DNA of 64,000 bases from the NCBI GenBank assembly GCA_018296165.2, contig JACKQL020000041.1, positions 413,466 to 477,465 of the forward strand, read 5' to 3'. Numbering within the stretch: position 1 is the stretch's first letter; the number at the start of each line of letters is the position of its first letter. Shown in pieces: positions 6,014 through 64,000 of this stretch. This DNA is from Termitomyces sp. T153 (Eukaryota; Basidiomycota; Agaricomycetes; Agaricales; Lyophyllaceae). The notes under the pieces were generated by a model that saw only the letters and a list, made by a program, of their open reading frames with translations, searched no databases and was not told the origin of the DNA. Both the position numbers and the translations under genes were made by a program.

Positions 6014-6026
6014 GGTTATGGGCCCC
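6014..6026 (+). promoter_or_regulatory. Primer-binding site of B (internal initiator tRNA-Met)
   Basis: GGTTATGGGCCCC directly follows the LTR. It is complementary to the anticodon arm of eukaryotic initiator tRNA-Met (GGGCCCAUAACC) rather than to a tRNA 3' end. This is the half-tRNA priming known for Drosophila copia. The gag ATG (6018) lies inside it. Confidence 0.7.
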
Positions 6027-12131: not shown

Positions 12132-12145
12132 TCACCCCCCCTTCA
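12132..12145 (-). promoter_or_regulatory. Polypurine tract of C
   Basis: Minus-strand TGAAGGGGGGGTGA abuts the 3' LTR and would prime plus-strand DNA synthesis. The same tract is found in D, H and I. Confidence 0.75.
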
Positions 12146-17892: not shown

Positions 17893-17897
17893 GAACC

Positions 17898-18944
17898 CAC
17901 AAACCTCGACTCTGGACCAGAAGGAACTTGTTGGGACTGATCACCCCAAACCCTGCCCCCTCATCATCAACACTCCAGAGCACACCAAAGCACCACCCGA
18001 GCACACCTGCCCATAAGACACAATACTCCAGAGCACAACTTTGACCCAAACCAACACTCTGGAGTGCAGCAAAGCCCTGATCCCAAGTACCCTTCACCAA
18101 ATACAATACTCTGGAGCTTGACAAAACCCCACCATGCACAACCCCACCCAAATGTAAACCTCTGAGCACCCCCAACCAAGGAATCGCAACCCTCACCCTA
18201 AGGGAGTACCTCTGCCTCCATGCTGACCAAACCCACAGCATAGATGGCATGGAAAACAGCCCCCCACCAACTTACTACAGGGACCACCCTACCCTAGGGG
18301 CTCTGCCACTAAGCCACCAGGGACTCCCTCCTCTGACCAACTATGCCCTGAGGACAAACCTCACCCTGCCACCCCCACCATCATTAAAAAGGACCTCCAC
18401 CACCCCACCACCTGCATCGGCATAAAGGCCAGACTGCTGGAAGACCTCCGCCCCTCCCACCAGCTGCACCAACAAAAGACCAAAGCCCTGACCACCCTGA
18501 ACACACATTGAAGACTTGGAGATCCACGCCTTTGAACCAGCACAATGCACATCTCCACCACAGACTAAAGAAAACCCCTACACCCTGGGTTTGAGACCCC
18601 AAGAATCAAACCCAGCAACACTATGCAACTCTGCAGGAAGACTCCCAACACCCCCGCTGAGCCTTGAGAACTCTTCCTACAGCACTCCACCCCATCCCAA
18701 CAACTCCGGGACTAGCCAACACAGACAGCATTAGTGGGCTTAACCCCCGCCTCTGGATCCACTAGGGATTCAACTCCCACCAGCACCCCTGCATGTTTCA
18801 CTTACCTCACCCTCACACAAATTAAACTCTCACTTCACACACCCAGGAACAATGAAGATGCATTGGAGTACAAAAAAAATATAATACAAGGTGGAACGGG
18901 GCAGCGAACTCGAAGACAACAAGAAGCAGGGCCTGACTGCCCCC
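17898..18944 (+). other. Degenerate internal region of D, middle piece
   Basis: Continuation of D after the GAACC duplication. It matches, in inverted form, the internal region of C and lies between the lost pol and the end of the antisense gene. No recognisable coding sequence. Confidence 0.55.
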
Positions 18945-19923
18945 TCACTCTTCCCCCAGAACCCCCACCACCCCCACCCCCAAATCAATCTCCATCTGGG
19001 CCCGCACCACCACCAAGACCTCCACCAACCCCAGCAAAGCCTTCTCCGCATCTGCCACCAATGACCCCGGGGCCACTGTGTTACACCACCAATGCCCTGC
19101 CAGCAACCTCCCTACCCTCACCATCCCCTGCTGCAACTTCAGAGGCTGACCCATGGACATCTGCACCAACCCATCTTGGATCAACACAAATGCTGCAGAG
19201 GCACTATCCAAGAGAACCTGGTGCTCCCGCACCCAGCCTGACCCCAAAAACAACCCATTTTAGTAACAGACAGAGAATTGGGAAAGACACTTACGAAGGA
19301 TCCCTGCGCGCCCTGAAGCGGCCTCATTGGCCAGCCAATCCTCCCTCCACCTCACTGCCTCTAACTCTGCCCACAGTGAACCACCCTCCGGCACCATTCC
19401 CCGCTCCTCTGCCTCCTCCATGGGCCACACCTCCCACTGCATCAGATGCTCCCACAAGCCCCATACTTCTGGCACTTGCTCCATCGCCACTCACACCAAG
19501 GTGTTCTGCACCCACTCCAACACCTCCTTCTCTGCCTGTGCCACATCTCAATCCTCCCTCACCCATTGAAGCTCCCCCTCCCATGCTGTCAATGCCACCA
19601 TTAGAACCTCCACCTGCTTGCAAAGGAAGACCTCCATGATTGAAGGCGGGAGCTCCAGAGAACTTGACACCCATCCCAAGGGCATGCCCAGGGTAGGAGA
19701 GTAAATGTGAGACCCTGGAGGCCCTGCCATTGGCTTGTGCCCCTGCAGCCTCTTGCTGGGCCCTGCCCCTAACAGCGGGGAAGCTCTCCACTTCCCATGG
19801 TCTGCCGCTGAGGATGCCCCCTCCCTCTGCCCACCCCACAGAGGCCCCACCTGCCCTACAGACTGCCCCACACTCCCCTCCCCCGACACCTGGGTCTTCC
19901 ATGCTTCACCCAGCTGACCCCAC

Positions 19924-30223: not shown

Positions 30224-31420
30224 TCACTCCCTCCCCGGACCCCCCGGCAACCCTACCCCCAGGTCAACTTCCATCTGGGCCTGCACCACCGCTAAGACCT
30301 CCGCCAACCCCGGTAACGCCTCCCCTGTGTCAGCCACCACCTCCCACCATGACCCCAGGGCCACCACATTGCGTCGCCGATGCCCCACCAACAACCTCTC
30401 CAATCATGCCATCCCCTGCTGCAACTCCAGAGGCTGAACCACGGACCCCTGCATCAACCCATCCTGAATCGATGCAAATGCCATGGAGGCACCATCCAAG
30501 AGGACCCGATGCTCCCGCACCCAGCCTAAACCCAGAAAATGAACCATTAGTAACAAACGGAGGAATGGGAGGCAACTCATGGAGGATTCCCACATGCCCC
30601 AAAGCGGCCTCATTGGCCAACCAGTCCTCCCTCCGCCTTACCACCTCCAGCTCTGCCCACAGCGCATCCCCCTCCAGAACTTGTCCCCACCCCTCCACTT
30701 CCCCCGCGGACTGCCACTCCATCTGCATCAGACACTCCCGCAAGCCCCACACCTCTAACGCTCGCTCCATCGCCACATGCACCAATGTGTTCCTTTCCTG
30801 CTCCATCGCCTCTTTCTCCATCTGCGCCATGTCACAGTCCTCCCTTGCCTGTCAGAGCTCACCCTCCTGTACTGCCAATGACGTTGTCAAAGCCTCCACC
30901 TGCTTGCAAAGGAAGACCTCCGTGATCAAAGGAATAGGCATAGGGGGACTCGACGACCGTTCCAAGGGAACACCTGGGGTAGGAGAAAAGAGGAGAGACT
31001 CCAGAGGCCCCACCAATGGCTCGCGCCCATGTGGCCTCTTGCTGGGTCCCACCCCCGAGGGCAGGGAGGCTCGGCACTTTTCCCGAATCACTGCCAAAGA
31101 CACCCCCTTACCCCGACCACCCCGCAAAAACCCCGCCTTCCCTGCAGACTGCCCCACGCTCCCCTCCTTCGGCAATGCGGGACAAAACTTGGTCCACTTT
31201 GGAACCCCCGGAAAATCTACCACCACCACCACGGACGACTCTACAAAAATCCCATCAGTCATCCCAAGAAGACAAGTTGACACCACTTACGACTCCAGTC
31301 CCTGACACTAGCGCAGTGCCAATGCTCAAACTCCTCCCCCCCACTGTCATACACCACCACCTCATCCAAATCAGAAAGTAACAGAATGGGGGAGACTACT
31401 GGAATGCTGGGGGAAGACAT
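30224..31420 (-). pseudogene. Antisense accessory gene of H (short form)
   Basis: Minus strand, starting 213 bp from the 3' LTR of H. Exon 1 31420-31291 is followed by a GTAAGT donor whose acceptor AG has become GG. The long second exon encodes the basic middle (GPSKRPHG), the ARMEKEAMEQERN-type coiled-coil segment and RRREDWLANEAA. The donor of the last intron has changed from GTGAGT to ATGAGT. The final exon has the WVREHRVLLDGA module and ends at TGA 30226-30224. Like C and I it lacks the zinc-cluster exon. Splice-site losses suggest the copy is dead, although the exonic frame is well preserved. Confidence 0.6.
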
Positions 31421-31619: not shown

Positions 31620-31633
31620 TGAAGGGGGGGTGA
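31620..31633 (+). promoter_or_regulatory. Polypurine tract of H
   Basis: TGAAGGGGGGGTGA abuts the 3' LTR. Confidence 0.75.
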
Positions 31634-33832: not shown

Positions 33833-35624
33833 TCAAGTTAATACATCAAAGGGGCGTCCAAGTAGGATGTCATAAGCAGGGGACCATAAAACGTGGATTT
33901 GGAGATACACAGTAATGTCGCCAATAGTGCAGGGTACGTTGCGAGCAAGTCCTAGCAATTGATCCAGGGTACCATTGGCACTCTGCATATTTAACACAAT
34001 GTTGGGGTTGTAGGATAACCCAATGTCACTAGCAATTTCTGCAGACATCAAAATTATCTGAGAACCACTGTCGTGAATGCATTCCACTTCCTCTTTGTTG
34101 TTGATCAGCATCATGATGGTATGAAGTGACTGAGAATCCTTAGCAACAGTGAGCACCACAGGCTCTTCTCCATGGGGTAGCGAATTGATATAAGCTTTGA
34201 CAGGGTCGACAGAAGCAAATGGTGCCTTGTCAGAGGTAAGTCCATTAGCAGTATCGGCATTGGATCTAAGTGAAAACTGGGGTTCTTCAATAGCGAACAT
34301 TGGCAAAATATCTTTGAAAATGTCACTGGGGTCCTGTACCATATTAGTGCTAGCGCCTACCAAATGTTTGGGCATAACTGCTGTCCTAAACTGATTCCTA
34401 ATGTCCTGTGATACTGAGCAAAGTTTGCCAATTGATACTGTAACCTTGGTGCTTAAAACCTGTTCAAAAACCACTTTAGATTGCTTGATGTCGTAAATGG
34501 GTGGCATAGTTCGATATGTGCTGTCATTAGTTCTGTCTGGAGCAGCGAAATTTCTGTTAGCGGGGGGGGCATAGCGACTAGGGATGCCTGAAAACAGATG
34601 GATGGGAGGCAGTTGTTCATTGGCGATGGTATGTTCAGGTTCTTTGCCTTTGTCTGCAGGCTTAGTGGCAGGAGCCATAGTTGAATCATAAGGGGATGAA
34701 GTTGCCAAGGTGTTGCTAGTCGAGGGTGTTGCCTTTGGGGCATCATTTGCTGGTCGGTAAGCTGCATGGGGAACTTGTATGCCATCAAACTTTTTGCCAT
34801 TTTGCCTGAGTGCAAAGAGTTTGCGTTCCAAAGCCTCAATCCATTCTTCCTTGCTTAGTGCTCGGCCCATAGCAACATCCTGTTGCATTACCTCATGGAT
34901 TAGTGACTGCTGCATAGCTGCCTGCTCTGGATCTGGGTTAGCATTAGAAGAGAGTCTGCCTGTGACAATTTGTCCTGGGTTAAGCCAGTGCCATTCCTTG
35001 ATGCATTCAATATATAGTCGCTTGCCAAAATAATTGGGAATCATAGCGCCAGATGGTAAAATGATCTTGCCTTCAGCGTTACAATGGATCTTACCCTGTT
35101 GAAGCATTTGCTCCATCTTCATACAAGTGCCTCGGACCATGGTGTGACCAACTTCTCTGCAGAAATGACAAGTGCTGTTAGCAAACTGTTGGTGAGATTG
35201 AATGTTACTGTTGGTCAAAAGCGCTTCCAAATGTTCCAAGGCACTGACGATCACTGTAGTGGTCACTAATTCCAAAGTTTCTTGCTTAGGCATAAGCAAA
35301 GGGATGGCTGGCGGGTTAGCAGTTGGCGATGACAAATGAATACCACTGGTGCCATTGCTGGTCTTGGTAGTAGAGGTGTCCATTCCCTTTAAAACCCACT
35401 TCGTGCCTTCAAAAACTTGATCAACTTCATAAGGGTCCTCAGGATGGTGGTTGGGAAGAGTGATTTCAAGATGGTGGATGATTTTAGACCATAGCAATGT
35501 AGGGATCCCTTGTTGGAACAAGCAACATTCCTTGTTTTGATAGAGTTTGCCATTAGCAAGTAACCATCTGGCAATACATTGGAAATCTCTGTAGTAGTCA
35601 GAGAATCTTCCCAAAGTCACTAAG
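33833..35624 (-). CDS. G gag C-terminal part and aspartic protease
   Basis: The longest open frame in the window, 595 codons, in frame with gag upstream of element I (…NSSL joins VTLGRF across the CTAAG duplication). It begins with gag-like helical sequence (YYRDFQCIARWLL) and a Cys/His segment (CHFCREVGHTMVRGTC, about residues 165-180: C-x2-C-x4-H) that may be a modified zinc knuckle. A long variable linker follows, then retropepsin at the end: IHDSGSQIILMS holds the catalytic D-S-G, and DILLGRPF is the usual C-terminal LLGRPW-type motif. It would process Gag-Pol in the particle. A TGA follows at 33833; the pol frame continues with stops toward 33580. Confidence 0.75.
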
Positions 35625-36778
35625 TGTCAGGTTCTGCTGACCTCGGGGGCTCAGCTGCACTGGGCGAGTCCTTACTAGGCGGGCATGATCCCCTTGCACT
35701 GGTAACCGAACACTCAAAAATGTTCTGGGCACTGATGACTTGTGCAGATAGTCGGTGGGGTGTGATCCCGACAGATCTGGGGAGGTCTGGAGGAGTCGGA
35801 TTGCAAGGAAATGGGACAGGCTTGGCGGGGTTCAGGCAGAAGTCCGTGTGGGAGATTCGCAGAAGCGAAGGAGTAGGCGGCTGGGTGATCAATGGGAGTG
35901 GAGCCGGGGTTTGATGGAGGATCAATTGGGTTTGATGGAGTCCGAGACTGAGCAAAGAGCGAGGTTCGAACCTGGTGAAAGAGTGTCGGGGTTCATAATT
36001 GTAATCGCGGAGTTTGTGAGGTTGTTAGGGTTGATGAAGACTTGGGCACAACGGTCAGACAGAGTCACCAAGACAGCATCAGACGGAATGATATGGAACA
36101 AGAGTAGATTCGAGTGGAGGTACAAAACAATAATGAGAATGATAACGAAATGGAGACAAGACAAGACTGGGAGACGGAGGTAAGACTAGGAGACTGAGAT
36201 AAGACCGGGAGACTGAGAGTAAGGGAAACAAGACACGAAACACAAAAAGGAAACAATCAGACCATAGGTAACATTAAGCAATATCAAGACTAGAGTACGA
36301 AGAGCTACTCGACGTCTTATATACTGACTACTGGAGAACTTTGGAGTTCATCAGTTGCGGCAGCGGGGCTTGGCGGAGCTCGACGGAGTGGGCAGGTGTC
36401 AGTTGCGATCGAGAGTCGGGCTGCACTGATACATTGATGGGATCATTTGGGAATGCAGGTCACCCCGAGGTTGTCATGATACTCTGGAATGGGTCAGAGG
36501 AACCAGGGTGTTGAGTTGATGATGGGCGGCAAAGATCAGGAACAGCGGGGGTGGTTCTCAGGGTTCAGGAGATCCAGGGTAAGTGTTAGTGGCTGTGGGG
36601 AAGGCATCGAAGTTGGCCAGGGGGCCGTCAGAGTTAGCCGGGGAGGTGTCGGAGTTAGCCGAAATAGGCGCGGGGCATGGGTGGAAGTTCGGCGGAGCGT
36701 CGGGGGTTTTTTGGGGGATCGGGGGGTTGCTGGACGATGTGTGGGGGTTTAGGGGACGGGTCGTGACATCACCCCCCC
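35625..36778 (-). repeat. 3' LTR of I
   Basis: 1154 bp, family-1 ends, with only two GAGTTAGC minisatellite units near 36630-36660. Confidence 0.9.
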
Positions 36779-36921: not shown

Positions 36922-38107
36922 ATGTCTTCCCCCAGCAATCCAGTAGTCTCTCCCGCCAATTTGGATGAGGTGGTGGTGTATGACAGTGGGGGGGAGGAGT
37001 TTGAGCATCGGCGCCACGCTAGCATCAGGGACCAGAGTCGTAAGTGGTGTCAACTTGTCTTTTTGGGATGATTGACAGGGCTTTTGTAGAGTCATCCATG
37101 GTGGTGGTGGTGGATTTTCCAGGGGTTCCAAAGCGGACCAAGTTTCATCCCATGCTGCCGAAGGAGGGGAGCATGGGGTGGTCTGCAGAGAAGGCAGGGC
37201 TTTTGTGGGGTGGTCAGGGAAAGGGGGCGTCCTCGGCAGTGATTCATGGGAAGCGTCGAGCCTCCCCACCCTCAGGGGCAGGACCCAGCAAGAAGCCACA
37301 TGAGTGCAAGCCATTGGCGGGGCCTCCAGAGTCTTTCCTTTTTTCTCCTACTCCGGGCGTTCCCTCAGAATGGTTGTTGAGTCCCCCCGTGCCTATTCCT
37401 TTGATCATGGAGGTCTTTCTTCGCAAGCAGGTGGAGGCTTTGACGATGTCATTGGCAGTACGGGAGGGTGAGCTCCAACAGGCAAGGGAGGACCATGACG
37501 TGGCACGGATGGAGAAAGAGGCGATGGAGTGGGAGAGGAACACTTCAGTGCACATGGCGACAGAGCGAGTGTTGGAGGTGTGGGGCTTGCGGGAGCATCT
37601 GATGCAGATGGAGGGGCAGCCCACGGGGGGAGGCGGAGGGGTGGGGATGAGTTCTGGAGGGGGATGCACTGTGGGTGGAGCTGGAGGCAGTGAGGTGGAG
37701 GGAGGATTGGTTGGCCAACAAGGCCGCTTCGGGGCACGCGGGAATCCTTCGTGAGTTGTCTCCCGTTCCTCCATTCATTACTGACGGTTCATTTTCTGGG
37801 TTTAGGCTGGGTGCAGGAGCATCGGGTCCTCTTGGACAGTGCCTCTGCAGTGTTTGTGTCGATTCAGGACAGTTTGACGCAGGGGTCTGCAGCTCAGCCT
37901 CCGGAGTTGCAGCAGGGGATGGCGCGATTGGAGAGGTTGTTGGCGGGGCATTGGCAACGCAATGTGGTGGCCCCGGAGTCATGGTGGAAGGTGGCAGCTG
38001 ACGTGGGGGAGGTGTTGCCAGGGTTGGCAGAGATCTTAGCGGTGGTGCAGGCCCAGATGGAAGTCGACCTGGGGGTTGGGTTGCCAGGGGGCCTGGGGAG
38101 GGAGTGA
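36922..38107 (+). pseudogene. Antisense accessory gene of I (short form)
   Basis: Exons 36922-37039, 37123-37750 and 37806-38107. Both introns (83 and 55 bases) have canonical ends and match C's in position. Protein features follow C: acidic start (DEVVVYDSGGEEFE), basic GPSKK segment, DVARMEKEAMEWERN coiled-coil segment, then WVQEHRVLLDSA and a 100-residue conserved C-terminus ending GGLGRE. A single extra G in the G-run near 37626 shifts the frame in exon 2; otherwise it is the least damaged short-form copy. It sits 143 bp from the LTR because about 70 bp of the upstream region, including the ATTAAAAG box, is deleted. Confidence 0.65.
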
Positions 38108-41210: not shown

Positions 41211-42478
41211 TGTCAGGTTCCGCTGACCTCGGGGGCTCAGCTGCACTGGGCGAGTCCTTACTAGGCAGGCATGATCCCCTTGCACTGGTAACCGAACACT
41301 CGAAAACGTTCTGGGCACTGATGACTTGTGCGGATAGTCGGTGGGGTGTGATCTGGACAGATCCAGGGAGGTCTGGAGGAGTCGGATTGCAAGGAAATGG
41401 GATGGGCTTGGCGGGGTTCAGGCAGAAGTCTGCATGGGAGATTCGCAGAAGCAAAGGAGTAGGCGGCTGGGTGATCAAAGGGAGTGGATCCGGGGTTTGA
41501 TGGAGGATCAATTGGATTTGATGGAGTCCGAGACTGAGCAAAGAGCGAGGTTCGAACCTGGTGAAAGAGTGTCGGGGTTCATAATTGTAATCGCGGAGTT
41601 TGTGAGATCGTTAGGGTTGATGAGGACTTGGGCACAACAGTTGGATGGAGTCACTGAGACAGCATCAGACGGGATGATATGGGACAAGAGTAGATTCGAG
41701 TGGAGGTACAAAATGATAACGAGAATGATAACAAAATGGAGACAAGACAAGACCAGGAGACAGAGGTAAGACTAGGAGACTGAGATAAGACCGGGAGACT
41801 GAGATAAGACCAGGAGACTGAGAGTAAGGGAAACAAGACACGAAACATGAAAAGGAAACAATCAGACCATAGGTAACATTAAGCAATATCAAGACTAGAG
41901 TATGAAGAGCTACTCGATGTCTTATATACTGACTACCAGAGAACTTCGGAGTTCATCGGTTGCAGCGGCGGGGCTTGGCGGAGCTCGACAGTGTGGGCGG
42001 GTGTCAGTTGTGATCGAGAGTCGGACTGCGCTGATACGTTGATGGGATCATTTGGGAACGTGGGTCGCCCTGAAGTTGTCATGATACTCCAGAATGGGTC
42101 GGAGGAACCAGGGTGTTGAGTTGATGATGGGTGGCGAAGATCGGGAATAGCGGGGGTGGTTCTCAGGGTTCGGGAGATCCAGGGTAAGTATCAGTGGCTG
42201 TGGGGAAGGCATCAAAGTTGGCCAGGGGGCCATCGGAGTTAGCCGGGGAGGCATTGGAGTTAGCCGGGGAGGCATCAGAGTTAGCTGGGGAGGCATCGGA
42301 GTTAGCCGGGGAGGCATCGGAGTTAGCCGGGGAGGCATCGGAGTTAGCCGGGGAGGCGTTGGAGTTAGCCAAAATAGGCACAGGGCATGGGCGGAAGTTT
42401 GGCGGAGCATTGGGGGTTTTTTGGGGGATTGGGGGGTTGCTGGACGATGTGCGGGGGTTCAGGAGATGGGTCGTGACA
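41211..42478 (-). repeat. 5' LTR of I with minisatellite expansion
   Basis: 1268 bp. Seven GAGTTAGC-centred units of 21 bp lie in tandem at about 42225-42375, against two in the partner LTR. An extra 19-bp GAGACTGAGATAAGAC-type unit lies near 41795. Confidence 0.9.
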
Positions 42479-44350: not shown

Positions 44351-45170
44351 CCACACCCAGTCCTTGTCCCACCCCTGCTCTGTGGCAATGCATGCTGCTT
44401 GCCACTCCAACAAAATCAAGCACTTCTTGTGGCTTGCACAACATGGAAGGCAAACAGAAGTGTCATGTTGCAAGCCCATGGAGGGCACATAAAAATGCAG
44501 GCCTTGCCCTGCCATGCACAGAGAACACACTAAAAACAACAGATCAGCACACATGACAAAAGAGAACTCAAAGACTCACTGGGGCCTTGTTTTGACACCA
44601 TTCTAGCGTTGGGGGGCCCCGAGCTCATGCCAATGCCCTTGCAAACTCCTCTGCCGTCACCTCCACCTGAGGGATTTGCTGCAATGGTGGGACCCCTTCT
44701 GCATCCCCTGCCACCAATCAGGGCACCGCAGGATGGAATTTGGCCCACCTAGGACCCCCTGAGGAACCCACCACTACTGTGGACAACTTTGCAAAACTCT
44801 GTCAGCCACCCTGAAAAAACAAGTCAATACTGCTCACAACTCCGGTACATGGCACCAGCTCAGTGCCAATGCTCAAACTCCTCCCCCTCGCTGTTGTACA
44901 CAATCACCTTATCCACATCTGAAAACAATAGGGCAGGGGAAGCAGCTGAGTAACTGGGAGAGGACATGACAAAAGATTTGGGAAGCCCCAGGGTATGTCC
45001 AAGGCTTTTTAATTGATTGGGAAGAACCCCCTGATGAAGTGGCAGCCATGCTTCAACTTCACCTCCCATGCCACCATCACTCACTGCAGATTGATCAATA
45101 TTACTTGGCTTCAACTCTCACGCCCCTGCTGATCCCCAACCCACTCCCCGTGTCTTGAGGGTCTTGATGC

Positions 45171-50742: not shown

Positions 50743-51758
50743 TGTTGAGGATATGTGGGCATATACCAGACATTCACCTACTTACCATTGCTTAGTATGT
50801 TTTCCATCTGATTCCAGTACATCACACCTCAGTTGTCATGACCCATTCCATTCCCCTCTTCCCTTCACCATTATCCAACCTCAGATTCTATACAGTCCCT
50901 CTCTAAATCTCAGCCACACCCCCAGATCTTAGCCACAGTCCTGTTTCAGCCACATCCAGGTTTTAGCCACCTCTAGGACCACTTTTCCTGTTCCAGATCA
51001 TTCCCACAGGCACAGATTACTTCCACAGGTTCCAGATCACTTCCACAGGTTCCAGATCACTTCCACCTGTTCCAGATCACTTCCACCTGTTCCAAATCAC
51101 TTCCACAGGTTCCAGATCACTTCCACCTGTTCCAGATCACTTCCACCTGTTCCAAATCACTTCCACAGGTTCCAGATCACTTCCACAGGTTCCAGATCAC
51201 TTCCACAGGTTCCAGATCACTTCCAGGATTGCTTCCCTTGTTCCAGATTGCTTTTTCATGACTTAGATCACTTCCTGCTATGACTTAGATCACTTCCATC
51301 TTCTCCTTTTGGCAGTGTCCTACAGCTATATAAGGTCCCTTAGTCTGTAGCTACACCCCAGCCTTGACATTATCTGATATCTTGTTTGTGTTCTGTTGTT
51401 ATCTGATCTTCTCTCCATTCATTACTCACTCTCATTTCTTAGTTTCTTAGTTTCTTTCCCTATTTACATACTTGCTGTTGGCATCACCTCCCCAAGGTGG
51501 TTTTGGCTCCTGTAAGAGTCCCCCTCCAGGACTGTGGTCCTGACATCAGTGTTTAACTCTCATCTAGGTGTAAGTCCCCATAGTTATATTCACTTACTAC
51601 ACTTACTGACATACTGTAGTTACATTGCATTCTTGCAAGTACATATTAATATATTCAGTGTTTAACTCTCACTGAAGTTTACATTGCATTCTCACAGTCT
51701 CACAACTTACTCTAGCCTACCTGTCACTACTCCTCCCACAACCAGCCCCTGCTCAACA
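50743..51758 (+). repeat. 3' LTR of copia B, interrupted by K
   Basis: 50743-50833 and 51551-51758 together match the 5' LTR (5720-6013). It begins TGTTGAGGATATG and ends CTCAACA, followed by resumed gag of A. Confidence 0.85.
50834..51545 (+). repeat. Solo LTR K with 20-bp tandem repeat
   Basis: 712 bp, TGTCATGACC...GTCCTGACA, with perfect TSD TCAGT (50829-50833 and 51546-51550). Its ends and TATATAA/AGCCTTGACATTA promoter (51327 and 51360) show a distant relation to family 1, but the body differs. About a dozen units of a 20-bp repeat (CAGATCACTTCCAC core) lie at 50985-51230. Confidence 0.85.
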
Positions 51759-53191: not shown

Positions 53192-54189
53192 TGTCAGGTT
53201 CTGCTGACGATGGGGGCTCAGTACACTGGCAAGTCCTTACTAGGTGGACGCAATGTCCTGCACTTATAACCAGGTGTCCGGAGTTGGAGCAGAGGTGGGG
53301 AAAGCTTGCGAGGGGGTTCCTAGGGAAAGTGGCCTGAGTAAGTCCTGAATGGTCTGGAGGAGTCTAAGACCAAAGGTACTGGTCATTGACTCAGGGTGGG
53401 TGTCAGGGCTAGTTTGTGGGCGCGCAAATAGATTGCAGGGTAAGTGGAGGTTTCTCGGGTGATGGGGGCAGGGTCGGAGCTGGATAGGGGATTTCCAGGG
53501 CTTGAGGGGTCCTGGGGCCAAGCAGGGAGCAAGGGTCAGAGTTGTCGTAAGAATGTTCAGGTTGTGGCATGTGCGCAGAGTTTGTACTGATGTAGGGAGC
53601 AAGAGGAACTTAGAAAAACAAAGGAAATATGTACAGTCGAGATGAGACGGAGATGAGATGAGACTGAGGAAAAAGATAGATTCAAAACTTAAAAACAGAA
53701 ACAGAGATGAGACTAGAGACGAAACATAGGAAACCAGTAAATGTAATATCAAGACTAAAGTTTGAGGAGTTATTCTACGACTTATATACTGACTACTGGG
53801 TACTTTGGAGGGCAGCGGATATGGTGGTGGGGGTCGACGGAGCTGTGCGGAGTCAATGGGTGTCGGGTACAATCCAAGGTCGGGCCATGGCGGTATTCTG
53901 ATGGGATCAGTTGGAGGCGCAGCCGCTCCGGGGACGTCGTGACACTCCGGGACGGGTCAGGTAAACTAGGGTAGGGGGTCGGGGATGTATGATGTGGCCA
54001 GGAATGGTGGGGGAAGGTTTCAGGGGGAATGTTGATGGCTACAGAGAGAGAGTTGGAGTTGCTGTTGGGGTTTGCTGGAGAAGCATCGGAGTTATCCAGT
54101 GTGGGCGTGAAAGTGTGGGTGGGGTTCAGGGGAGTTAGATGGGAAGTTGTGAGGGGTTGGGAGCAGTGTCTAGGGAGTGGGTTGTGACA
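53192..54189 (-). repeat. 3' LTR of E
   Basis: 998 bp. Over the first 109 bp it differs from the 5' LTR at 12 positions, every one a transition. Confidence 0.9.
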
Positions 54190-54399
54190 TTACCCCCCCT
54201 TCAGCGTCGAGACCCTCGAGACACAGGGAGCGAGTCGGGGATCGGTAGGGCATGGGAATCAAAGTTGATCAATATTGATCAAACCACAGCAAGTGGCAGC
54301 ATGGGGAAGGAAGTCAAGGTGCGGCTGCTATTTGTCAGGGGCTCCTTCCTAAGTTATTAAAAGAGGTGGACGCACCCGGGGGTCCCCCAACTTGTTGTA
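54190..54399 (+). promoter_or_regulatory. Purine tract of E and putative antisense promoter
   Basis: Minus-strand TGAAGGGGGGGTAA (54190-54203) is the purine tract. Between it and the antisense ATG lie CAATATTGATCA (54269) and ATTAAAAG (about 54355), both conserved at matching places in C, D and H, suggesting a separate promoter for the antisense gene. Confidence 0.5.
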
Positions 54400-56096
54400 A
54401 TGTCTTCTTCAGCTTATTCTCCCACAGCATCTAGGTCACCGTCTCCGCCATCCCAGCCGTTGTCTTCCAAAGATTCAGAGGGTCACCCAGATCACCATCA
54501 GGTCGAGGCAATGTACCGTAGTCATGAGTGCAGTCTGTCTCATGTACCCCAGAATACTGATTGCTCCTTCGCAGAGTTGTCCGTGGCCGTGGTTGGTCCC
54601 TCAGGGCCACTGTCTGGCATGGATGCAACACAGCCACCAGCGGGCGTGGCCCCTTCTACGCACTCCAAGTCTGGCATTCGTCTGGGGGTGGTCTGGCTTG
54701 TCCCAGAGGGTTTGAGGGTGGTACAGGTGGAGGTGACGCCGGAGCAGTTTGCCAAGGCGGTGGGTCAGGTGAGGGGTCCCCCCACCCTCAAGTGGTGTCA
54801 GGCAGCAGCCCCGGTGAGTGGCTACTTAGCATTATATTTCCCAGACCAACATGCCCCTGCAGTGTGTGTCTTGTACCTGACAAGGGGAGCAGTGTGAATT
54901 TGAGGAACCTGCATTGGGGGTATGGCGGGACATGTCGGTGTGCCTTCTGTGCCATTCACGGCATGAGAAGTGCTCTGTCACCCTGAGTTGGCAGGCCATC
55001 TGCGTCGCAGCGGAGCAAGGGTGGAATTGGGGCTGGGTCACAGCGCAGCTGGAGGAAGGGTGGAAGGGCAGGGTGTCGGGGAGGGTCTCTGGGGCTGGGG
55101 AAGGGGAACGGGTTAGCATGCCTGCCATGAAGGTGGGCCCCCCGCAGGGTGGGCAGAGGGAGGGGGCCCCATCCACGCAGGAGAAAGGGAAACGGAGAGC
55201 GTCCCCTTCACCCAAGGCAGGTCCCAGTAAGCGGGTGCAGGGTGAGCAAGTAATGGGGGGCCCCCCTGGTTCCGTGGTGTACTCCCCTACATCCAAAGCC
55301 CCCATTGAGCAGTCCACAGATAAGTCGTGGTTGGTTGCGGAGGCCTATCTGCGGTGTCGGGTAGAGAGCTTGGAATGGTTGTTGGTCACACGCAAGGAGG
55401 AGATTCAGGAGGTATGGGAGGAGAGGGACAGGGCTCAACAGGAGTTGGATGGGGTTTGGAGGGAATGGGACTTGGCGTGGAAAGACAAGGATGTTGCTGT
55501 CAGGACTGCTGCGGAGCGATTGTCTCGTCTGCAGGAGTTGGAGGTGCGGACGGTGCATTTGCAGGCTTGGGTGGAGGTGGCAGAGGTGGCGACACAGCAG
55601 GCAGGAGGTTCAGGAGTGCAGGAGACCCAGCAGGGTTCCAGTGCTGGGGAAGTCTGGGCGGTGGCGGAGAGGGCGCGGTGGCAGGAGGAATGGCTTGCCA
55701 ACAAGGTGGCCTCGGGCCGGCGAGGAGTTCTTTGTGAGTGGTTTCCCTGCTTCCTGTCTCCTAAGCACAGATTCAGTTTCCATAGACTGGGCCAGGGAGC
55801 ATCGCATCCTTCTCGACGGAGTGTCAGCAGTGCTGGGGTCCATCCATGATGGGTTGGCGAGGATGCCTGGGGACCTTCCGCCAGAGTTAGGTCAAGGGGT
55901 TACGCAGATGGGGCATCTGTTGGCAGGGCATCGGCAGAGGGTGACGGCAGACCCTGGAGCATGGTGGGAGATGGCGATGGATGTGGGGGAACCGCTTCCC
56001 AGGCAACCCAAGGTTCTGGCGATGGTAGTGGTGCAGTTGGAAGTGTTCATGGTGGGGAGGGTAGCAGGGTTTGGGTCAGAGGGGGAGGGGGAGTGA
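54400..56096 (+). pseudogene. Antisense accessory gene of E (long form with zinc cluster)
   Basis: Exons 54400-54523, 54605-54813, 54845-55733 and 55786-56096 join to exactly 511 codons. Introns are 81, 31 and 52 bases. Intron 1 has donor ATGAGT where its relatives have GTAAGT or GTGAGC, and it also reads through in frame. Exon 2 encodes VWLVPEGLRVVQVEVTPEQF. Exon 3 opens with the zinc cluster C-x2-C-x6-C-x15-C-x2-C-x6-C (residues 118-154), broken by one TGA (CGA origin likely) at residue 123. Next come a basic segment (GKRRASPSPKAGPSKR) and about 110 residues rich in Glu, Arg, Gln and Trp that look coiled-coil (EEIQEVWEERDRAQQE). Exon 4 is the conserved WAREHRILLDGV module. Product is probably nuclear and DNA- or RNA-binding, by inference only. 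Confidence 0.7.
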
Positions 56097-56326
56097 GGGG
56101 AACTTGGACCCCATTGTTGAATCGTTCTCTGTCCATCCTTGTTCGATATGTATATTCACCATTTCTCGCTATACATTTTTTTTTTGGTCCTTCTGCTGAG
56201 TGTGGGAGGTTTCAGATAGAGCAAGGAGAGGAGTAAGTGAAAACATGTAGGAGAGTACTGGTGGGAGTTGAATCCCTGGTGAACCCAGAGGCGGGGGTTA
56301 TGCCCACTACTGCCATCTGTGTTGGA
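56097..56326. other. Tail-to-tail spacer of E
   Basis: 230 bp between the stop of the antisense gene and the stop of pol. Contains a T-run (56169-56179) and AT-rich sequence suitable for transcript ends. No gene. Confidence 0.5.
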
Positions 56327-56740
56327 TCAGTCCTGGGGGTTCCGGAGCTTGGTGGGATTTTGTCGGTGGAAGTCCCAAAGTTTGTCGGGGGCTCTGTTGA
56401 GGTTCTTCTGGGGTTCCCATGTGTTGTCCTCAGGTCTGTAGCCCTTCCAGTGGACCAGGTACTGGAGTCGGCCACAGACTATCCAGGAGTCGAGGATCTC
56501 ATTGACCTCATAGTGATACTTGTCCTCGACTTTGATGGGGGGCGGTCGGCTGGGGCATTGGCCAGGGAAGGGGTCTGGGGCGTGCCTTTCAAGGAGTCGA
56601 ACGTGGAACACAGGGTGGAGGCCCTTCAGGCCCGGAGGCAGGTCGAGCTTGTAAGCGTGGGTGGACACCTTCCAGAGGATCTTGAATGGGCCGAGGCGTT
56701 TGTGATTGAGTTTGATGGAAGGCCTCCAGGTCTTAAGATT
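56327..56740 (-). pseudogene. E integrase tail (GPY/F) and chromodomain
   Basis: 56668-56327 reads [22 protein letters not shown], the end of the integrase GPY/F region. The chromodomain follows from about 56530: [34 protein letters not shown] and LWDFH, with aromatic cage positions Tyr, Trp and Trp present. Chromodomains steer chromovirus integration to heterochromatin marks, which fits the nested landscape here. Stop TGA at 56329-56327. Confidence 0.85.
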
Positions 56741-57640
56741 TCACTGGTTGAGCCAGACCAGGGTGCCAGGGAGCCAGTCGGGGGTTGGCTTGTGACGGGC
56801 ATCGGCATGCTTGGAGTAGGCTTGGTTGGCAGTGTTGATCTCATCCTGGAGGAATTGGTGGAGGGATTGGAGGTCCTCGGCAACTTTGTGGGCAATGTGG
56901 GAAGGGATGTCTCTGAGGGACAGCGTGAGTCGAGGATTGTAGCCCTTGTTGGCATAAAAGGGGGAAACTCTGGTGGCAGAGTGAGGCATGTTGTTGTAGG
57001 TGAATTCGGCGAGGGGAAGCTCCGTGTGCCAGTCATTCTGTAAATAGTTAACGTAGAGGTGAAGATACTGTTCTAACATCTGGTTTACGCACTCAGTTTG
57101 TCTGTTGGTTTCCGGGTGGTAGGCAGTAGAGAGGTTGGTTTTGATCTCGAGTGCCTTGCACAGTGATTGCCAAAAATGTGATACGAATAGGGGTCCACGG
57201 TCGGAGACAATGTCATCGGGAAGTCTGTGTTTGGAGAAGACATGTTCAAGAAATAGTTTGGTGAAATCCAGGGCAGTGTCGGTGGTGTGGCAGGGGATAA
57301 AGAGGGCTTGTTTAGTAAGGTGGCAGATGATGACAAGGATTGCGTCGAAACCTTCAGAGTCGGGGAGTTCAACGATATGATCCATCAATATTGAGGACCA
57401 GGGGCGGCAACCAACAGGGAGGGGTTTCAGTAATCCATGGGAGCGATGGCAGGGTACCTTGGCCCATAGGCAGGGTTCGCAGGCTCTTACATATTGCGTG
57501 ACATCCTTCTTCATTCCTGGCCAAAAATAAGTCCAGGAGATGAGTTGAAGGGTCTTACAAATTCCTGGGTGCCCCCAGAGTTTGTGATCGTGGTGCTGCT
57601 GGAGTATGTCAAGGTGAATGGACTTGTGGTCCGGGGCATA
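56741..57640 (-). pseudogene. E integrase
   Basis: An H-H-C-C zinc-binding N-domain is visible across a frame change (QQHHDHKLWGHPGI near 57600; CEPCLWAK near 57480). The core is MDHIVELPDSEGFDAIL (Asp), IVSDRGPLFVSHFW (Asp) and NRQTECVNQMLEQY (Glu), all catalytic residues retained. PHSATRVSPFYANKGYNPR follows. 257 codons are open from 57514. Inserts cDNA into the genome. Confidence 0.85.
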
Positions 57641-58500
57641 GATTTGTCCACTCTAGAGCAGGAGGTGGTGGTCCAGGGATAGTGAAAAGGGGTTGTCTAT
57701 GCTTGACTCGTCAGGGTTGTTGCGGGGGTCATGCTGGTTGAAGAAGGGGTCCAGGGGTGAATTCCTGGTTTGCTGAAGGATTCCTTCTTTGTTTAAAATC
57801 AGCACAGCATGTAGATGTTCAGGTGGGATTACCACTCGATGGTTGAATGCATTTCATTTGGTTTCGAACAATTTCTTTGGATACACGTCGGGTCTTCGAG
57901 TGAGGGCATCAGGCTTTGCACTGAGTTGTCCGGGGCAGTAGTGAATAGTAAAATCGTACTCTGAGAGGGTTTCAGACCATTGAGCCTGGCAGTGGCTGAG
58001 CTGTTTTGTGGTCGTGAAATATTGCAGGTTGTTGTGATCGGAGTAGACTTGGATGCAGTGCAGGGACCCCTCGAGGTAGGCCCGCCACTGACAAAAGGCT
58101 TCGACGATCATGAGGAGTTCCTTGTCATAAATATTGTAGTTGAGTTCCACTGGGATCATTGATTGGGTGTAGAAGGCAACGGGGCAGAGATCCTTGCCCC
58201 CCGAGTTTGACTGGGAGAGTATCCTGGCGATAGCGTAGTTGGAGGTGTCACATTCAAGCATGATCAGTAGGGAGGGGTCAAAATGGTGGAGGACTGGAGC
58301 GGAGGTAAAGGCCTTCTTCAGGAGGAGGAATACGCTCTGGCACTTGCTGTTCCAGTCCCAAGGGGTGTCCTTCCGCGTGAGTTGGTTGAGGGGTTTGGTG
58401 ATCCTGGAGTAGTTGTTGATGAAGTGGCAATAGAAGTTAGCAAACCCCAAGAATGACTGTACCTCCTTGACGTTCCCGGGGAGGGCCAGTTGAGTATTGC
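57641..58500 (-). pseudogene. E RNase H and linker
   Basis: 58480-57854 reads VKEVQSFLGFANFYCHFI, HFDPSLLIMLECDTSNYAI (RNase H Asp), SMIPVELNYNIYDKELL (Glu), YSDHNNLQYF and the end DALTRRPDVYPKKLFE. A one-base deletion near 58480 separates it from the RT frame. 57835-57641 is the linker VIPPEHLHAVLILNKEGIL in a second frame. Confidence 0.85.
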
Positions 58501-59355: not shown

Positions 59356-60405
59356 CTGGAAGGCAGGAGTGCCTTCTCATAAGAGGCGCGTGAAGGGGAC
59401 GGCGCCGATGATTTTAATGTCAAGGTTTCTGGAGTCGACAGGGTTGGGTACCATAGGTATAACAGTCGGGTTTGGGGTGACATCGAGATCAGAGATAGAC
59501 TGGAAGCAGAGGTGGATGGCGGCCACTAAGCTTGCTTCAGGGCCGGGGAATTGCATGGTGAGGTTCTTCCAGTTGATGTCGGGGTTGACATCTCACAGCC
59601 ACAGGTGTCTGAGCACGATCGGGGTCGACGGGGGTAGTTGGGTAACGAGGAGTCAGGCCTGGAACTGCAGGTCATTATTGAGGGTGAGGGTGTTGTCATG
59701 GTACTGCGTGATTCTTGTCGTGGCGGGGCTTCCGTTGAAGAGTTGGAGCTCGAGGGGTTTGTCAAGGTCATTGCGTTGGAGGTTGAGTTGGTTGCTGATG
59801 AAGACACTGGAGGCACCGCTGTCTACGAGGGTGGGAAGTACCTTGAGTGAGCCACCAAGTTGGACATAGATGATGAACAATCGTGCAGACCTAGAGCAAA
59901 GTTGCGGCGGGGTCCAGAGTTGGTCAATCGGGGTCTCGGAGTTCTTGGAGGGGGGTGAGACATTGAAGGGTACCAGTCCAGAGTCGGTGGGGTTGTCCTG
60001 GTCAAGGTGTAGGGTGAGACTGGGCCAATCAACATGGGGGTTGGTGGAGCGGAGCCATGAGAACCCTAAGATGATGGGGGCGGAGGGGTGTAATTTTGTG
60101 ACGAGTAGTCGGAGTTCTTGCTGTTGTCCATCGGCAAAGGTCAGGGTCATTTCTAGGCAATGAGTGATGTCTCCCGCTGGGGTAGAGCCTCTGTCAAAGA
60201 GTTTGAGGGGGATCAGGGTGGGGAGGTGGTGGAGGGGTTGTGGGGCAAGCGCCGCCAGGGATTCGTCAACAAAGTTATTGGTGGTGCTGCTGTCGACTAG
60301 TGTGGGGACAGGTTTGTTAGTGAATGGGAGAGTGGTGCAGAGGAGGAGGTTTGTGGAGGAGTGGGAGGGGAGGTGTGCTGGGGGGTTATCCGGGGCGAGT
60401 ACCAT
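59356..60405 (-). pseudogene. E tandem aspartic proteases
   Basis: ATG at 60405, same frame as RT. Two retropepsin-like copies lie in tandem. Copy 1 (about residues 35-145) has VDSSTTNNF and ends with PIILGFSWLRSTNP. Copy 2 (about 195 onward) has VDSGASSVF and ends with PIVLRHLWL. Both have the LLVT-LPS/PSxPI strand. Copy 1 carries Asp-Ser-Ser, shared with element A, so it is not a recent mutation. Stops at about 59653, 59591 and 59377 are TGA where CGA is expected. Confidence 0.8.
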
Positions 60406-60557
60406 TGTGCAGAGGAGTGTGGCTGGGGCAGGGAAGACGTCGGGATATGGTCCGTGGTCTAGTGCATCTTCCAGACCTAAACCGCTGACTCATTTTCCAT
60501 GAACTGGTAGTTACAGTCCTCTCCATCAATCGTCCACATGGCGCATCCCATCACCTG
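60406..60557 (-). other. gag-protease spacer of E
   Basis: Short spacer between the gag stop (60558) and the first protease ATG (60405), in another frame than gag. It may need a translational recoding event or reinitiation. Confidence 0.4.
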
Positions 60558-62984
60558 TCATTTAGGACAACTGCAAATAAAGTGTCCCTGCTCACCACAT
60601 AGGATGCACGCACCTTCCTTCCATCGTTTCTCCTGCATTCTACGGCACGTTGATCCACGGGCTGTCCTGGATTCTGTTTGCGCATAGGGCTTCTTGATTG
60701 TTGGTGGGGTCCGGGATGTCGTTGTGGTCGTCAGGGTTGGTATTCAGGGGTACTGGGGTGTCATGGAGGTCGGCGGCATTGAGCTGGGTGGGTGGGTGCT
60801 GCCCCGGGGGTCAGTTGGTGTTGGGGACTCCTTGGCCCAGAGGGAAGCGGGGTGTGGGGTTAGCGGGGTTAGCGGGGATTGAGGATCGAATGCCATTGGT
60901 TGCTCCAGCCTGCCAGTTGGTGTTACCAGAGGTGTTCTAAGAGGTCCAGGGCACTGTGTTTTCGCTGCGGTCTTCCCAGTAACGTTGGTCGACCTGGGTA
61001 ATGAGCACCTTGTACCCGTCATAGGTGGTTTGCTTGGGCGCAAGGCGGAGGACGTCCTTGATCTGTTGGGGTAGGGCACAATGGAGGGTGAACCGGAGGG
61101 TGTTGTAATTCCAGCCGGTCTCGTAGGCCTCTTGTTCAAATCGTACGATAAAGGTCATGAAGCGTTCATTGTCGCGCATTTGGAGGTTGAAGAGATTTTC
61201 CTCTGCCTCTGCTATGGTGTCAAAGACACCAAACTTACTCAAGAACTCTCGGGTGAAAGCGAGCCAGTTGGAGAGTACAGGATTGTTTGGGTCGAACCGG
61301 AGTAGCACAGTGTAGTGGTCGAAGGTGATGCCCTGTAAGTATGATGTGGCGAAGGCTACTCATGAGCTCTCAAGCTGAAAAGTGATGGGCTTAGCTTGGA
61401 ACATAGTTAAACACTGAGTCAGGAAGATTTGCCACTTCCAAGAGTCATGGCTGGTGAAGGGTTTGGGCTTCTGGATGTCAAGTTTACCCTCCCGGGCCAG
61501 TGCGTCGTGGGTATTGTCCTGTGAATTTTGAGTTTGAGGTGGGGGTCTGGTGTTATAGTAGTAGTAGTAGTGATTTCTGTTTCTGTGCTGGGGGGGAAAG
61601 TTGTCCATCGCCGGGCCCCATCCTCCAGGGGGTCCGCCATTGGGTGGTCCTCCACTGGGGATTTGGCCCGCGCTACCTGGGGTGGGTCCTGGGGCCCATT
61701 GAGGGGGAGGGGGTTTTCTGGGAGTCAGGGGTCTGAAATAGTTGGTGTCAGTGGGGGGATTAAGCATTGGGGCGGGTGGGGGACAAGAGGGGTTGGTGGC
61801 AAAAGGGGGCTGGAGCGCCCCAGGGCCCATGGGCTGTCGCGGGGGAACTGGGGCATTAGGACGGGGCAGAGGGGCATTGATACGAGGGGCACGGAGATCA
61901 AAGTGGGGGGGTTGGTCTCGTTGAGGCCCATTGCACAGGGCATGTTTGTTGGCAGGGTTGCCCAGCTCATTGATATAGGAGAGGGTCCGGTTGTCATCAT
62001 TGATGCATAGGGGCAGTTGTTGGGAATGGAGTTTGGGGGTGGCGGGTTGGTTCCAGGTTTGGAAGGTGCTGGGCACGGAGCTGGCCCAGGGCCGGGCAGA
62101 GAGGGCCAAGGTGTGGGCGGCGGGTTGGTCAAACAACCCCCCCGTGGGGTTGAGGTTCCTCAAGATGCTGGAGGCCACATTGAGTTCTTCCTGCTGGTGG
62201 GGAAGGGAAGATGGGGCTTTGTTTCATGTTCCGACGGGTTCCTCGCGTTGCATGTGGAAGGAGCAGGTGGGATCCAGAGGGTCTTCAAAGGGGCAGGGGT
62301 TCAGGCTAGTATGGATTTCTTCAACCAAGGCATGGAGCTCATTCTGTAAGTTATCATCAATGCCCAGAGTGCCTTGCATATTCTCCAGGAGGTTCCCTTG
62401 CAGGTAGCATTCGTGGAAGTCAAGGAGTCGATCCGCCCAGACCTCCGGAGTTGCGGAGGCATCAGGGTAGCCAAGGTTGGTGAGGGTGCGGGTACACCTT
62501 GCAAATTCCACAGGGGACAGGTGGAGGGAGCAGAGAACTTCATCGCGTTGTTGGGCATAGGCTTCGACCCTTTGCTGCCTAGGAGAAGGAGGAGTTTGAG
62601 CGGCAAATGGTGGGCAGGGGGGGGAATCGTTATCCATGAGTTCTGGAGGGACTGGGGCTGCAGCAGGGATTGGATATGGCGGTGGAATGGGCGGGGGGGA
62701 AGGTAGGCAGGATTGGGGGGTGCTGCGGAGTATCCTCCAGGGTTGATATGGGGGTTATTGCCATTGGCGTGGAACGTGAGAGGGCGGCACCAGCCTGGGG
62801 GTATTCCCTGGCTGATGGAGAGGGTGTAGAATGCCTGGTTGGGGTCAGGGGTCCAGTGATGGGGCACGTATTGGTCCACGAAGGGACCCTAGTAGAATGG
62901 GGCATAGGGATTTTCTAGGAGAGGCCAGCCATAGGCATTGGTTGGGTAGCTGACAGGGTTGTACGCAGGGTTAAACACAGACAT
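60558..62984 (-). pseudogene. E gag
   Basis: ATG 62984. Tyr/Pro-rich start (MSVFNPAYNPVSYPT); TAG at about 62892. 62637-61360 carries PRQQRVEAYAQQRDEVLCSL, the LSPVEFARC segment, a long Pro/Gly linker with a tyrosine run (about 61565) and SWKWQIFLTQCLTMF. 61377-60937 is the capsid-like core (NPVLSNWLAFTREF, FIVRFEQEAYETGW, YWEDRSEN). The end has a zinc knuckle CILCGEQGHFICSC near 60590. Several frame changes and stops (62224, 61360, 60937). Packages element RNA. Confidence 0.75.
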
Positions 62985-63003: not shown

Positions 63004-63016
63004 AGTCTTGATATTA
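63004..63016 (-). promoter_or_regulatory. Primer-binding site of E (self-priming)
   Basis: Minus-strand TAATATCAAGACT immediately next to the 5' LTR. All 13 bases are complementary to AGTCTTGATATTA at 63569-63581. Confidence 0.72.
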
Positions 63017-64000
63017 TGTCAGGTTCCGCTGACAACAGGAGCTCAGTACACTGGCAAGTCCTTACTAGGCGGACGCGATGTCCTGCGCTTATAACCAGGC
63101 ATCCAGAGTTGGAGCGGAGGTGGGGAAAGCTTGCAAGGGGGTTCCTAGGGAAAGCGGCCCAAGTAAGTCCTGAATGGTCCGGAGGAGTCTAAGACCGAAG
63201 GTACTGGTCATTGACCCAGGGCAGGTGTCAGAGCTAATTCATGGGCGCGCAAATAGATTGCAGGGTAAGCGGAGGTTTCTCGGGTGATGGGGGTGGGGTC
63301 GGGGCTGGATAGGGGATTTCCAGGGCTTGAGGGGTCCCGGGGCTGAGCAGGGAGCAAGGGTCAGAGTTGTCATAAGAATGTTCAGGTCATGGCACATGCG
63401 CGGAGTTCGTACTGACGTAGGGAGCAAGAGAAACTTAGAAGGACAAAGGAAATATGTACAGTTGAGACGAGACAGAGACAAGACAAGACTGAGGAAAAAG
63501 ATAGATTCAAAACTTAAAAACAGAAACAGAGACAAGACTAGAGACAAAACATAGGAAACCGGTAAATGTAATATCAAGACTAAAGTTCGAGGAGTTATTC
63601 TACAACTTATATACTGACTACTGGGTACCCCAGAGAGTAGTGGATATGGTGGCAGGAGTCAACGGAGCTGTGCGGAGTCGACGGGTGTCGGGTACAATCC
63701 AAGGGCGGGCCACAGTGGTATTCTGTTGGGATCAGTTGGGGGCGTGGGCCGCTCTGAGGATGTCGTGATACTCTGGAACAGGTCGGGTAAACTAGGGTAG
63801 GGGGTCGGGAACATATGACATGGTCAGGAATGGTAGGGGAAGGTTTCAGGGGGAGTGTTGATGGCTACGGAGAGGGTGTTGGAGTTGCCGTCGGAGTTTG
63901 CCGGAGAAGCACCGGAGTTATCCAGTGTGGGCAGGGTTCAGGGGAGTTAGACGGGAACTTGGGAGGGGTTGGGAACAGTGTCTAGAGAGCGGGTCATGAC
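63017..64000 (-). repeat. 5' LTR of E, reaching the window edge
   Basis: Begins TGTCAGGTTCCGCTGACAAC. At 64000 it reads GGTCATGAC, one base short of the expected end ACA, so essentially the whole LTR is present. Confidence 0.9.
63569..63613 (-). promoter_or_regulatory. LTR promoter of E: TATA box and predicted RNA start
   Basis: Minus strand: TATATAA beginning at 63613 and AGTCTTGATATTA beginning at 63581, 32 bases downstream. Confidence 0.65.

What the first reader, a model, noticed from the sequence alone, without database searches (positions are those of the whole stretch)
54400..56096. Antisense, intron-containing zinc-cluster/coiled-coil gene carried by a gypsy retrotransposon
Seen: opposite to gag-pol of E, between pol and the 3' LTR, four exons join to exactly 511 codons with a C-x2-C-x6-C-x15-C-x2-C-x6-C motif, a basic patch, a coiled-coil-like region and a conserved C-terminal module. 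Related genes sit in the same place in D, C, H, I and F. Known: antisense extra ORFs are reported in some plant gypsy elements, but I know of no described zinc-cluster gene of this kind in fungal elements. Inference: an accessory protein that may regulate transcription, packaging or silencing of the element.
Basis: partly seen in the sequence, partly recalled or inferred. Interest (0 to 1): 0.92.

Follow-up and report, generated by a model that had tools for sequence, protein, structure and literature searches.

The report
Antisense regulator-like gene in mushroom retrotransposons
Retrotransposons of termite-farmed Termitomyces fungi carry, on the strand opposite to their own genes, a real intron-containing protein gene with a zinc-binding-type motif and a coiled coil; selection has kept it, and it probably regulates the element, as antisense genes do in some retroviruses.

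Summary
The gene (54400-56096, +) lies antisense between the chromodomain end of a Ty3/gypsy pol and the 3' LTR. It has four exons and 514 codons, not 511. This copy looks dead: one in-frame stop within the cysteine motif and a lost intron-1 donor. The genome holds at least 39 further copies. A sister gene (35-42% identity) with introns at matching places occupies the same position in other families. Codon-level constraint is shown in the E family (N/S 9/24 for widely shared against 96/59 for private variants, p=0.0004; none in shifted frames) and between families (codon positions 2>1>3>introns); the sister family gave no within-family signal. The six-cysteine motif resembles a Zn2Cys6 cluster with swapped halves, below Pfam's cut-off. 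Every listed homolog is from Termitomyces. Three other elements in the window show no credible gag-pol and carry only this gene, without the zinc region. Best reading: a regulator of the element, working like antisense genes of plant Retand/Grande or HTLV. Expression, zinc and DNA binding are untested. Antisense genes in fungal elements are already known (Boty brtn).

The parts
53192..54188 (-). 3' LTR of element E
   Evidence: 87.5% identical to 63017-64000
54194..54205 (-). polypurine tract (read on the minus strand)
   Evidence: same 12-mer abuts or lies just inside the 3' LTR of C, G, H and E
54206..54399 (+). conserved region upstream of the gene: candidate promoter, with AATATTGATCA and a TTAAAAG box
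   Evidence: 100 nt before the ATG 66% identical between families against 41.5% in introns; AATATTGATCA somewhere in 30 of 30 E loci and 17 of 20 sister loci
54400..54523 (+). exon 1
   Evidence: ATG in 31 of 31 copies
54524..54574 (+). intron 1 (51 nt; donor lost in this copy)
   Evidence: GT..AG in 13 of 31 copies, AT..AG in 18
54575..54813 (+). exon 2
54814..54862 (+). intron 2 (49 nt)
   Evidence: GT..AG in 30 of 31 copies
54863..55733 (+). exon 3: zinc-cluster-like motif, basic patch, coiled-coil-like region
54863..54973 (+). C-x2-C-x6-C-x15-C-x2-C-x6-C motif (in-frame stop 54878-54880 in this copy)
55316..55606 (+). coiled-coil-like helical region
   Evidence: helices 273-369 of P0001 in a low-confidence model, placed here by counting codons
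55734..55785 (+). intron 3 (52 nt)
   Evidence: GT..AG in 23 of 31 copies
55786..56096 (+). exon 4: C-terminal module and stop
   Evidence: 45-60% identical to sister copies over most rows
56330..56740 (-). pol C-terminus: SH3_Tf2-1 and chromodomain
   Evidence: PF00385 E=1.6e-13
56744..57652 (-). integrase
   Evidence: PF17921, PF00665
57857..58594 (-). RNase H
   Evidence: PF17919, PF17917
58321..59376 (-). reverse transcriptase
   Evidence: PF00078 E=6.5e-33
59656..60489 (-). aspartic-protease region
   Evidence: PF13975 E=1.2e-5, PF13650 E=5e-5
61363..62754 (-). presumed gag region (two frames)
   Evidence: position only; no Pfam match
63004..63016 (-). primer-binding-site-like 13-mer abutting the 5' LTR
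   Evidence: same 13-mer abuts the LTR in C, G and H
63017..64000 (-). 5' LTR of E, cut by the contig end
12586..13486 (+). related gene without zinc region in element C (LTRs 10947-12137 and 16692-17898)
30266..31166 (-). related gene without zinc region in element G (LTRs 26293-27472 and 31626-32805)
37164..38065 (+). related gene without zinc region in element H (LTRs 35625-36661 and 41211-42266)
44351..45164 (-). 5' part of a sister-family gene region (its coding match begins near 44798)
18561..19921 (-). 3' part of the same sister-family gene region, split off by a nested insertion (coding match 19092-20015 reaches a little into the insertion's repeat)

Best explanation
Chromodomain Ty3/gypsy elements of Termitomyces, and related elements in which no gag-pol was detected, carry a protein gene antisense between pol and the 3' LTR. 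Shown: gene anatomy, fixed place, introns at matching places in two families, codon-level constraint in the E family and between families. Inferred: the gene is transcribed from its own conserved upstream region towards pol; because it is antisense to the genomic RNA, its introns survive retrotransposition; the spliced mRNA makes a coiled-coil protein whose zinc-cluster-like domain binds the element's conserved upstream or LTR sequence in the nucleus and tunes its transcription, repression being somewhat likelier than activation by analogy with HTLV antisense proteins. Copies without the zinc region would make partners that pair but do not bind DNA.
For: 39 of 40 scored places carry LTR end, gene and pol tail together. 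Introns at matching places in the sister family at 35-42% identity. E family, non-CpG variants: N/S 96/59 private, 23/28 in 2-3 copies, 9/24 in four or more, p=0.0004 (26 copies; p=0.001 with all 31); shifted frames p=1 and 1; integrase control 43/39 against 0/19. Between families: identity 0.57, 0.625, 0.47 at codon positions 1-3, introns 0.415, upstream 100 nt 0.657. Six cysteines at constant spacing in 31 of 31 and 18 of 20 copies; weak Zn_clus matches. HTLV antisense proteins, two of them without bZIP domain, repress their LTRs (passages of PMC10186651).
Against: No expression data. This copy carries a stop. The sister family shows no within-family constraint (115/76 against 15/12, p=0.68). 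Zn_clus stays under its cut-off and is absent in 2 of 5 copies tested; Dickkopf_N matches about as weakly. Both structure models are poor (pLDDT 48). Elements C, G and H keep the gene without its zinc region, so DNA binding is not needed for their spread. The conserved upstream block adjoins the polypurine tract and might be kept for reverse transcription.
Confidence: 0.5

Rival explanations
1. The protein is real and selected but acts elsewhere in the life cycle: a nucleic-acid-binding or coiled-coil accessory protein for packaging, nuclear import or integration of the element.
For: Constraint and basic patch fit any nucleic-acid-binding role; elements without detectable gag-pol keep the gene.
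Against: It is not part of the sense transcript, so it would have to be made from a separate mRNA; the cysteine pattern differs from retroviral CCHC knuckles (recalled).
Confidence: 0.22
2. A captured host gene that is a passenger: it does nothing for the element and is copied along with it.
For: Most copies are decayed: 27 of 31 E copies have in-frame stops or frameshifts under the three-exon model; the sister family gives no within-family signal.
Against: N/S falls with age of variants in the E family only in the true frame; codon-position pattern between families; same gene and place in several families. No host source gene was seen, though none was searched for beyond.
Confidence: 0.12
3. 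What matters is the antisense RNA or the DNA itself (antisense transcript, dsRNA silencing, or sequence needed for reverse transcription), not the protein.
For: Upstream block and a stretch around the pol stop are strongly conserved non-coding DNA.
Against: Third codon positions and introns diverge most, opposite to what RNA or DNA constraint on the gene body would give.
Confidence: 0.1
4. A chance reading: long open frames on a GC-rich strand opposite nothing in particular.
For: Long frames occur on both strands here.
Against: Frame kept in 26 of 31 copies, introns kept between families, codon-level constraint.
Confidence: 0.02

Closest known systems
Antisense additional ORFs between pol and 3' LTR of plant gypsy elements (Grande gene23, RIRE2, Retand TRP28 proteins)
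   Same: Same place and orientation, present in most copies of a family, suspected DNA-binding or nuclear proteins, also present in non-autonomous Retand elements (passages of PMC7264820 and PMC11963269)
   Different: Fungal host; zinc/coiled-coil protein with no TRP28 match; three introns shared between families, where the passages seen mention none
Boty-like elements of Botrytis and Sclerotinia with antisense gene brtn (Zhao et al. 2011, cited in PMC7264820 and PMC8365987; the paper itself not seen)
   Same: A fungal gypsy-type element with an antisense gene between pol and 3' LTR
   Different: Homology could not be tested because the sequence was not at hand; no Botrytis protein among the hits listed
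HTLV-1 HBZ and APH-2/3/4 (passages of PMC10186651)
   Same: Antisense, near the 3' LTR, spliced mRNA, dimerising-type region in HBZ; relatives without the bZIP domain still repress the LTR, as the forms without zinc region here might
   Different: bZIP rather than zinc cluster; promoter inside the 3' LTR, here apparently in the stretch between LTR and gene; no homology claimed
Fungal Zn(2)-Cys(6) binuclear cluster (PF00172)
   Same: Six cysteines in two C-x2-C-x6-C halves; in some copies each half matches part of the profile
   Different: Halves in swapped order, 15-residue linker, all scores under the cut-off of 21 bits

Membership tests
Ty3/gypsy chromovirus (element E) | LTRs; RT, RNase H and integrase in pol; C-terminal chromodomain | tested here: met
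[quoted passage not shown]
   39 of 40 scored places carry the whole block; order
Antisense aORF between pol and 3' LTR | antisense transcription | not testable with these tools
   no RNA data held
Fungal Zn(2)-Cys(6) cluster (PF00172) | six cysteines in two C-x2-C-x6-C halves | tested here: met
   31 of 31 E and 18 of 20 sister copies
Fungal Zn(2)-Cys(6) cluster (PF00172) | Pfam gathering score | tested here: not met
   best 18.9 bits against 21; 2 of 5 copies had no match
Fungal Zn(2)-Cys(6) cluster (PF00172) | order of the two halves and a linker of about 5-12 residues (recalled) | tested here: not met
   second half matches profile 2-15 in 2 of 3, first half 20-35 in 1 of 3 copies; linker 15
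Fungal Zn(2)-Cys(6) cluster (PF00172) | binuclear zinc fold | tested here: inconclusive
   models of pLDDT 48
HBZ-type bZIP antisense protein | bZIP domain | tested here: not met
   no bZIP match in Pfam for two copies and two database relatives
Boty brtn | sequence homology to brtn | not tested
   sequence not at hand

The most novel reading that the evidence does not exclude
The gene is a circularly permuted zinc-cluster regulator at the heart of a shared control circuit: elements without gag-pol, carrying nothing recognisable but this gene plus the same primer and polypurine sites, spread as satellites of the autonomous element. Some families keep the DNA-binding form; others carry an in-frame form without the zinc region that acts as a natural dominant-negative partner, so that retrotransposons contend with each other through variants of one regulator gene.
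Probability: 0.2. Interest if true: 0.85.

Novelty: new variant of a known kind. Interest (0 to 1): 0.62.

Why it matters
According to the two reviews and surveys seen in passages, antisense accessory genes of LTR retrotransposons have no settled function. Here one gene family offers many copies in one genome, carriers with and without gag-pol, natural deletion variants, measurable selection and a candidate regulatory region, so whether such genes regulate their elements can be tested directly. The antisense orientation also explains how an intron-bearing gene can persist in a retroelement.

Tried and rejected
Three-exon model (531 codons): used, replaced by four exons after seeing the 514-residue J132 protein and the matching intron of the sister family, 49 nt long in 18 of 20 copies (so keeping it would break the frame). 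The anchor named 'chromo' was read in a wrong frame; it marks a conserved stretch around the pol stop, and the true chromodomain is. CpG transitions were set aside in the selection tests because they dominate the decay; among them N/S shows no drop (166/92 against 10/6). Rfam gave nothing for 54100-56600. PDB sequence searches gave one chance-level match (E 0.98) and none. The two AlphaFold models were too poor for a fold search. Relatives outside Termitomyces: none among the listed hits, 95 of 95, 120 listed of 144 (24 unseen), 70 of 70; searches scored only the roughly 8000 candidates sharing most words, and the tool needs shared 5-residue words, so distant relatives can be missed. Paper searches listed nothing on a zinc-type antisense gene in Termitomyces elements; I saw listings only, apart from the papers cited by passage or section.

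Full report
What was given.

Organism. The window is the end of a contig of an unnamed 72.4-Mb genome. Every listed protein hit is from the mushroom genus Termitomyces, and five database proteins of that genus match loci of this genome at 99-100% over 120-224 residues. The genus belongs to Agaricales, family Lyophyllaceae.

The element. E lies on the minus strand. Its LTRs are 53192-54188 and 63017 to the contig end, 87.5% identical. Pol pieces give reverse transcriptase, RNase H and integrase and a chromodomain (E=1.6e-13). The pol stop is at 56327-56329, so gene and pol converge without overlapping. E's own gag-pol is spread over several frames with stops between.

The gene. Exons 54400-54523, 54575-54813, 54863-55733 and 55786-56096 encode 514 residues, the length of the annotated J132 protein P0001. 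In this copy one stop lies inside the cysteine motif and intron 1 has no GT. Of 31 copies aligned, 26 keep an exon length divisible by three and 4 have no in-frame stop (three-exon model). The start codon is present in 31 of 31. GT..AG ends: intron 1 in 13 of 31 (AT..AG in 18), intron 2 in 30 of 31, intron 3 in 23 of 31.

Copies. The gene's DNA matched 40 scored places, the window's own included, over at least 1672 of 1697 bases. A 2.8-kb probe spanning LTR end, gene and pol tail matched 40 scored places, 39 of them over at least 2.7 kb. These are lower bounds; the first looks listed 659 and 2304 candidates.

Sister families. A protein of another Termitomyces (P0093) matched 127 scored candidates in this genome. 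In 20 fetched copies (L039-L058) three introns lie at matching places, with GT..AG in 11, 20 and 13 of 20, at 35-42% identity to E's exon 3. In 19 of 20 a stretch that in E surrounds the pol stop lies downstream on the opposite strand (compared as DNA for five of them). Three more divergent copies keep the gene (L059-L061).

Selection. E family, non-CpG variants: private N/S 96/59, in 2-3 copies 23/28, in four or more 9/24; p=0.0004 (26 in-frame copies) or 0.001 (all 31). Two shifted frames show no drop (p=1 and 1). Integrase in 29 of 30 loci (one short match dropped) gave 43/39 private, 11/8 in 2-3 copies and 0/19 in four or more (p=1e-5), so the gene is constrained but less than integrase. 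The sister family gave 115/76, 39/31 and 15/12 (p=0.68), which counts against uniform constraint. Between families, identity at codon positions 1, 2, 3 is 0.57, 0.625, 0.47, introns 0.415, 3' flank 0.45.

Upstream region. The 100 nt before the ATG are on average 66% identical to the sister family, more than any codon position (single copies 48-70%). AATATTGATCA is somewhere in 30 of 30 E loci and 17 of 20 sister loci; the 18-bp palindrome around it is in 26 of 30 E loci and 0 of 20 sister loci. This may be a promoter or a reverse-transcription signal.

The motif. Six cysteines at C-x2-C-x6-C-x15-C-x2-C-x6-C are present in 31 of 31 E copies and 18 of 20 sister copies, although 15 and 1 of these have a stop within the 37 codons. 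Zn_clus scored E=0.0016 and 0.0035 in two of five copies, 1.9 in one and nothing in two, all under the cut-off; Dickkopf_N matched weakly too. Tested apart, second halves matched profile positions 2-15 in 2 of 3 copies and first halves 20-35 in 1 of 3. A zinc cluster with swapped halves is a hypothesis from this. AlphaFold predicts long helices with mean pLDDT 48 and does not settle the fold.

Elements carrying the gene alone. C, G and H (6.5-7.0 kb) and the stretch of a sister element in L062 show no credible RT, integrase or protease: weak tblastn matches only (E 0.001 to 0.09 in C, G and H; 0.64 or more in L062) and no Pfam match in the four largest sense frames of each (16 frames). Weak RT and RNase H matches at 25.2-26.2 kb lie outside these elements. 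C, G and H share with E a 13-nt primer-site sequence and the polypurine tract; L062 has the 13-mer with one change. C, G and H lack the zinc region while the frame runs on into the coiled-coil part, apart from stops; a T. cryptogamus protein (P0183) has the same form. P0183 matched 115 scored places in this genome; counted by eye, 22 run without break across the junction and 51 of 115 stretches have no stop (best-scoring places only). Codon positions of C, G and H against the sister family: 0.75-0.76, 0.70-0.73, 0.66-0.67, introns 0.57-0.60, a weak coding pattern.

Relation to known systems. [quoted passage not shown] HTLV antisense proteins repress their LTRs, some of them without a bZIP domain. 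The present gene is a new variant of that kind: no Pfam family above cut-off, intron-bearing, present in elements with and without detectable gag-pol, and found so far only in Termitomyces.

Verdict. Real, selected, element-borne gene: about 0.95. Regulator of the element through a zinc/coiled-coil protein: about 0.5, inferred from anatomy and analogy. Nothing here shows expression, zinc binding or DNA binding.

Noticed in passing
63004-63016 with 63569-63581 and 53744-53756; LTRs of C, G, H; L062:2363 and 3030: The 13-mer next to the 5' LTR is complementary to a 13-mer inside the LTR: in 8 of 8 window LTRs (exact in E's two, one mismatch in six), and in L062 both sides carry the same change. 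This looks like Tf1-type self-priming of reverse transcription.
   Followed up: partly
19922-44350: A nested insertion of about 24 kb with 1.1-kb direct repeats at its ends (93.8% identical) splits a sister-family gene in two and contains elements G and H.
   Followed up: partly
56240-56340 and matching places in L039, L042, L044, L052, L057, C, D, G, H: A stretch of about 100 nt around the pol stop (GGGAGTTGAATCCC...) is strongly conserved between families although largely non-coding; no Rfam match.
   Followed up: partly
E copies L007, L009-L038: Copies differ mostly by C/T and G/A changes, with CpG the most frequent context; nearest copies are 89-94% identical, suggesting methylation-type decay of an older burst.
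   Followed up: no
50973-51272: A tandem array of about 20-nt units.
   Followed up: no
5997-7022, 25424-26302, 33836-35626: Pieces of other retroelements: a copia-type gag match (E=3.5e-11), a weak RNase H match and a protease-type match; a gag-like stretch related to E's at 4020-5321.
   Followed up: no
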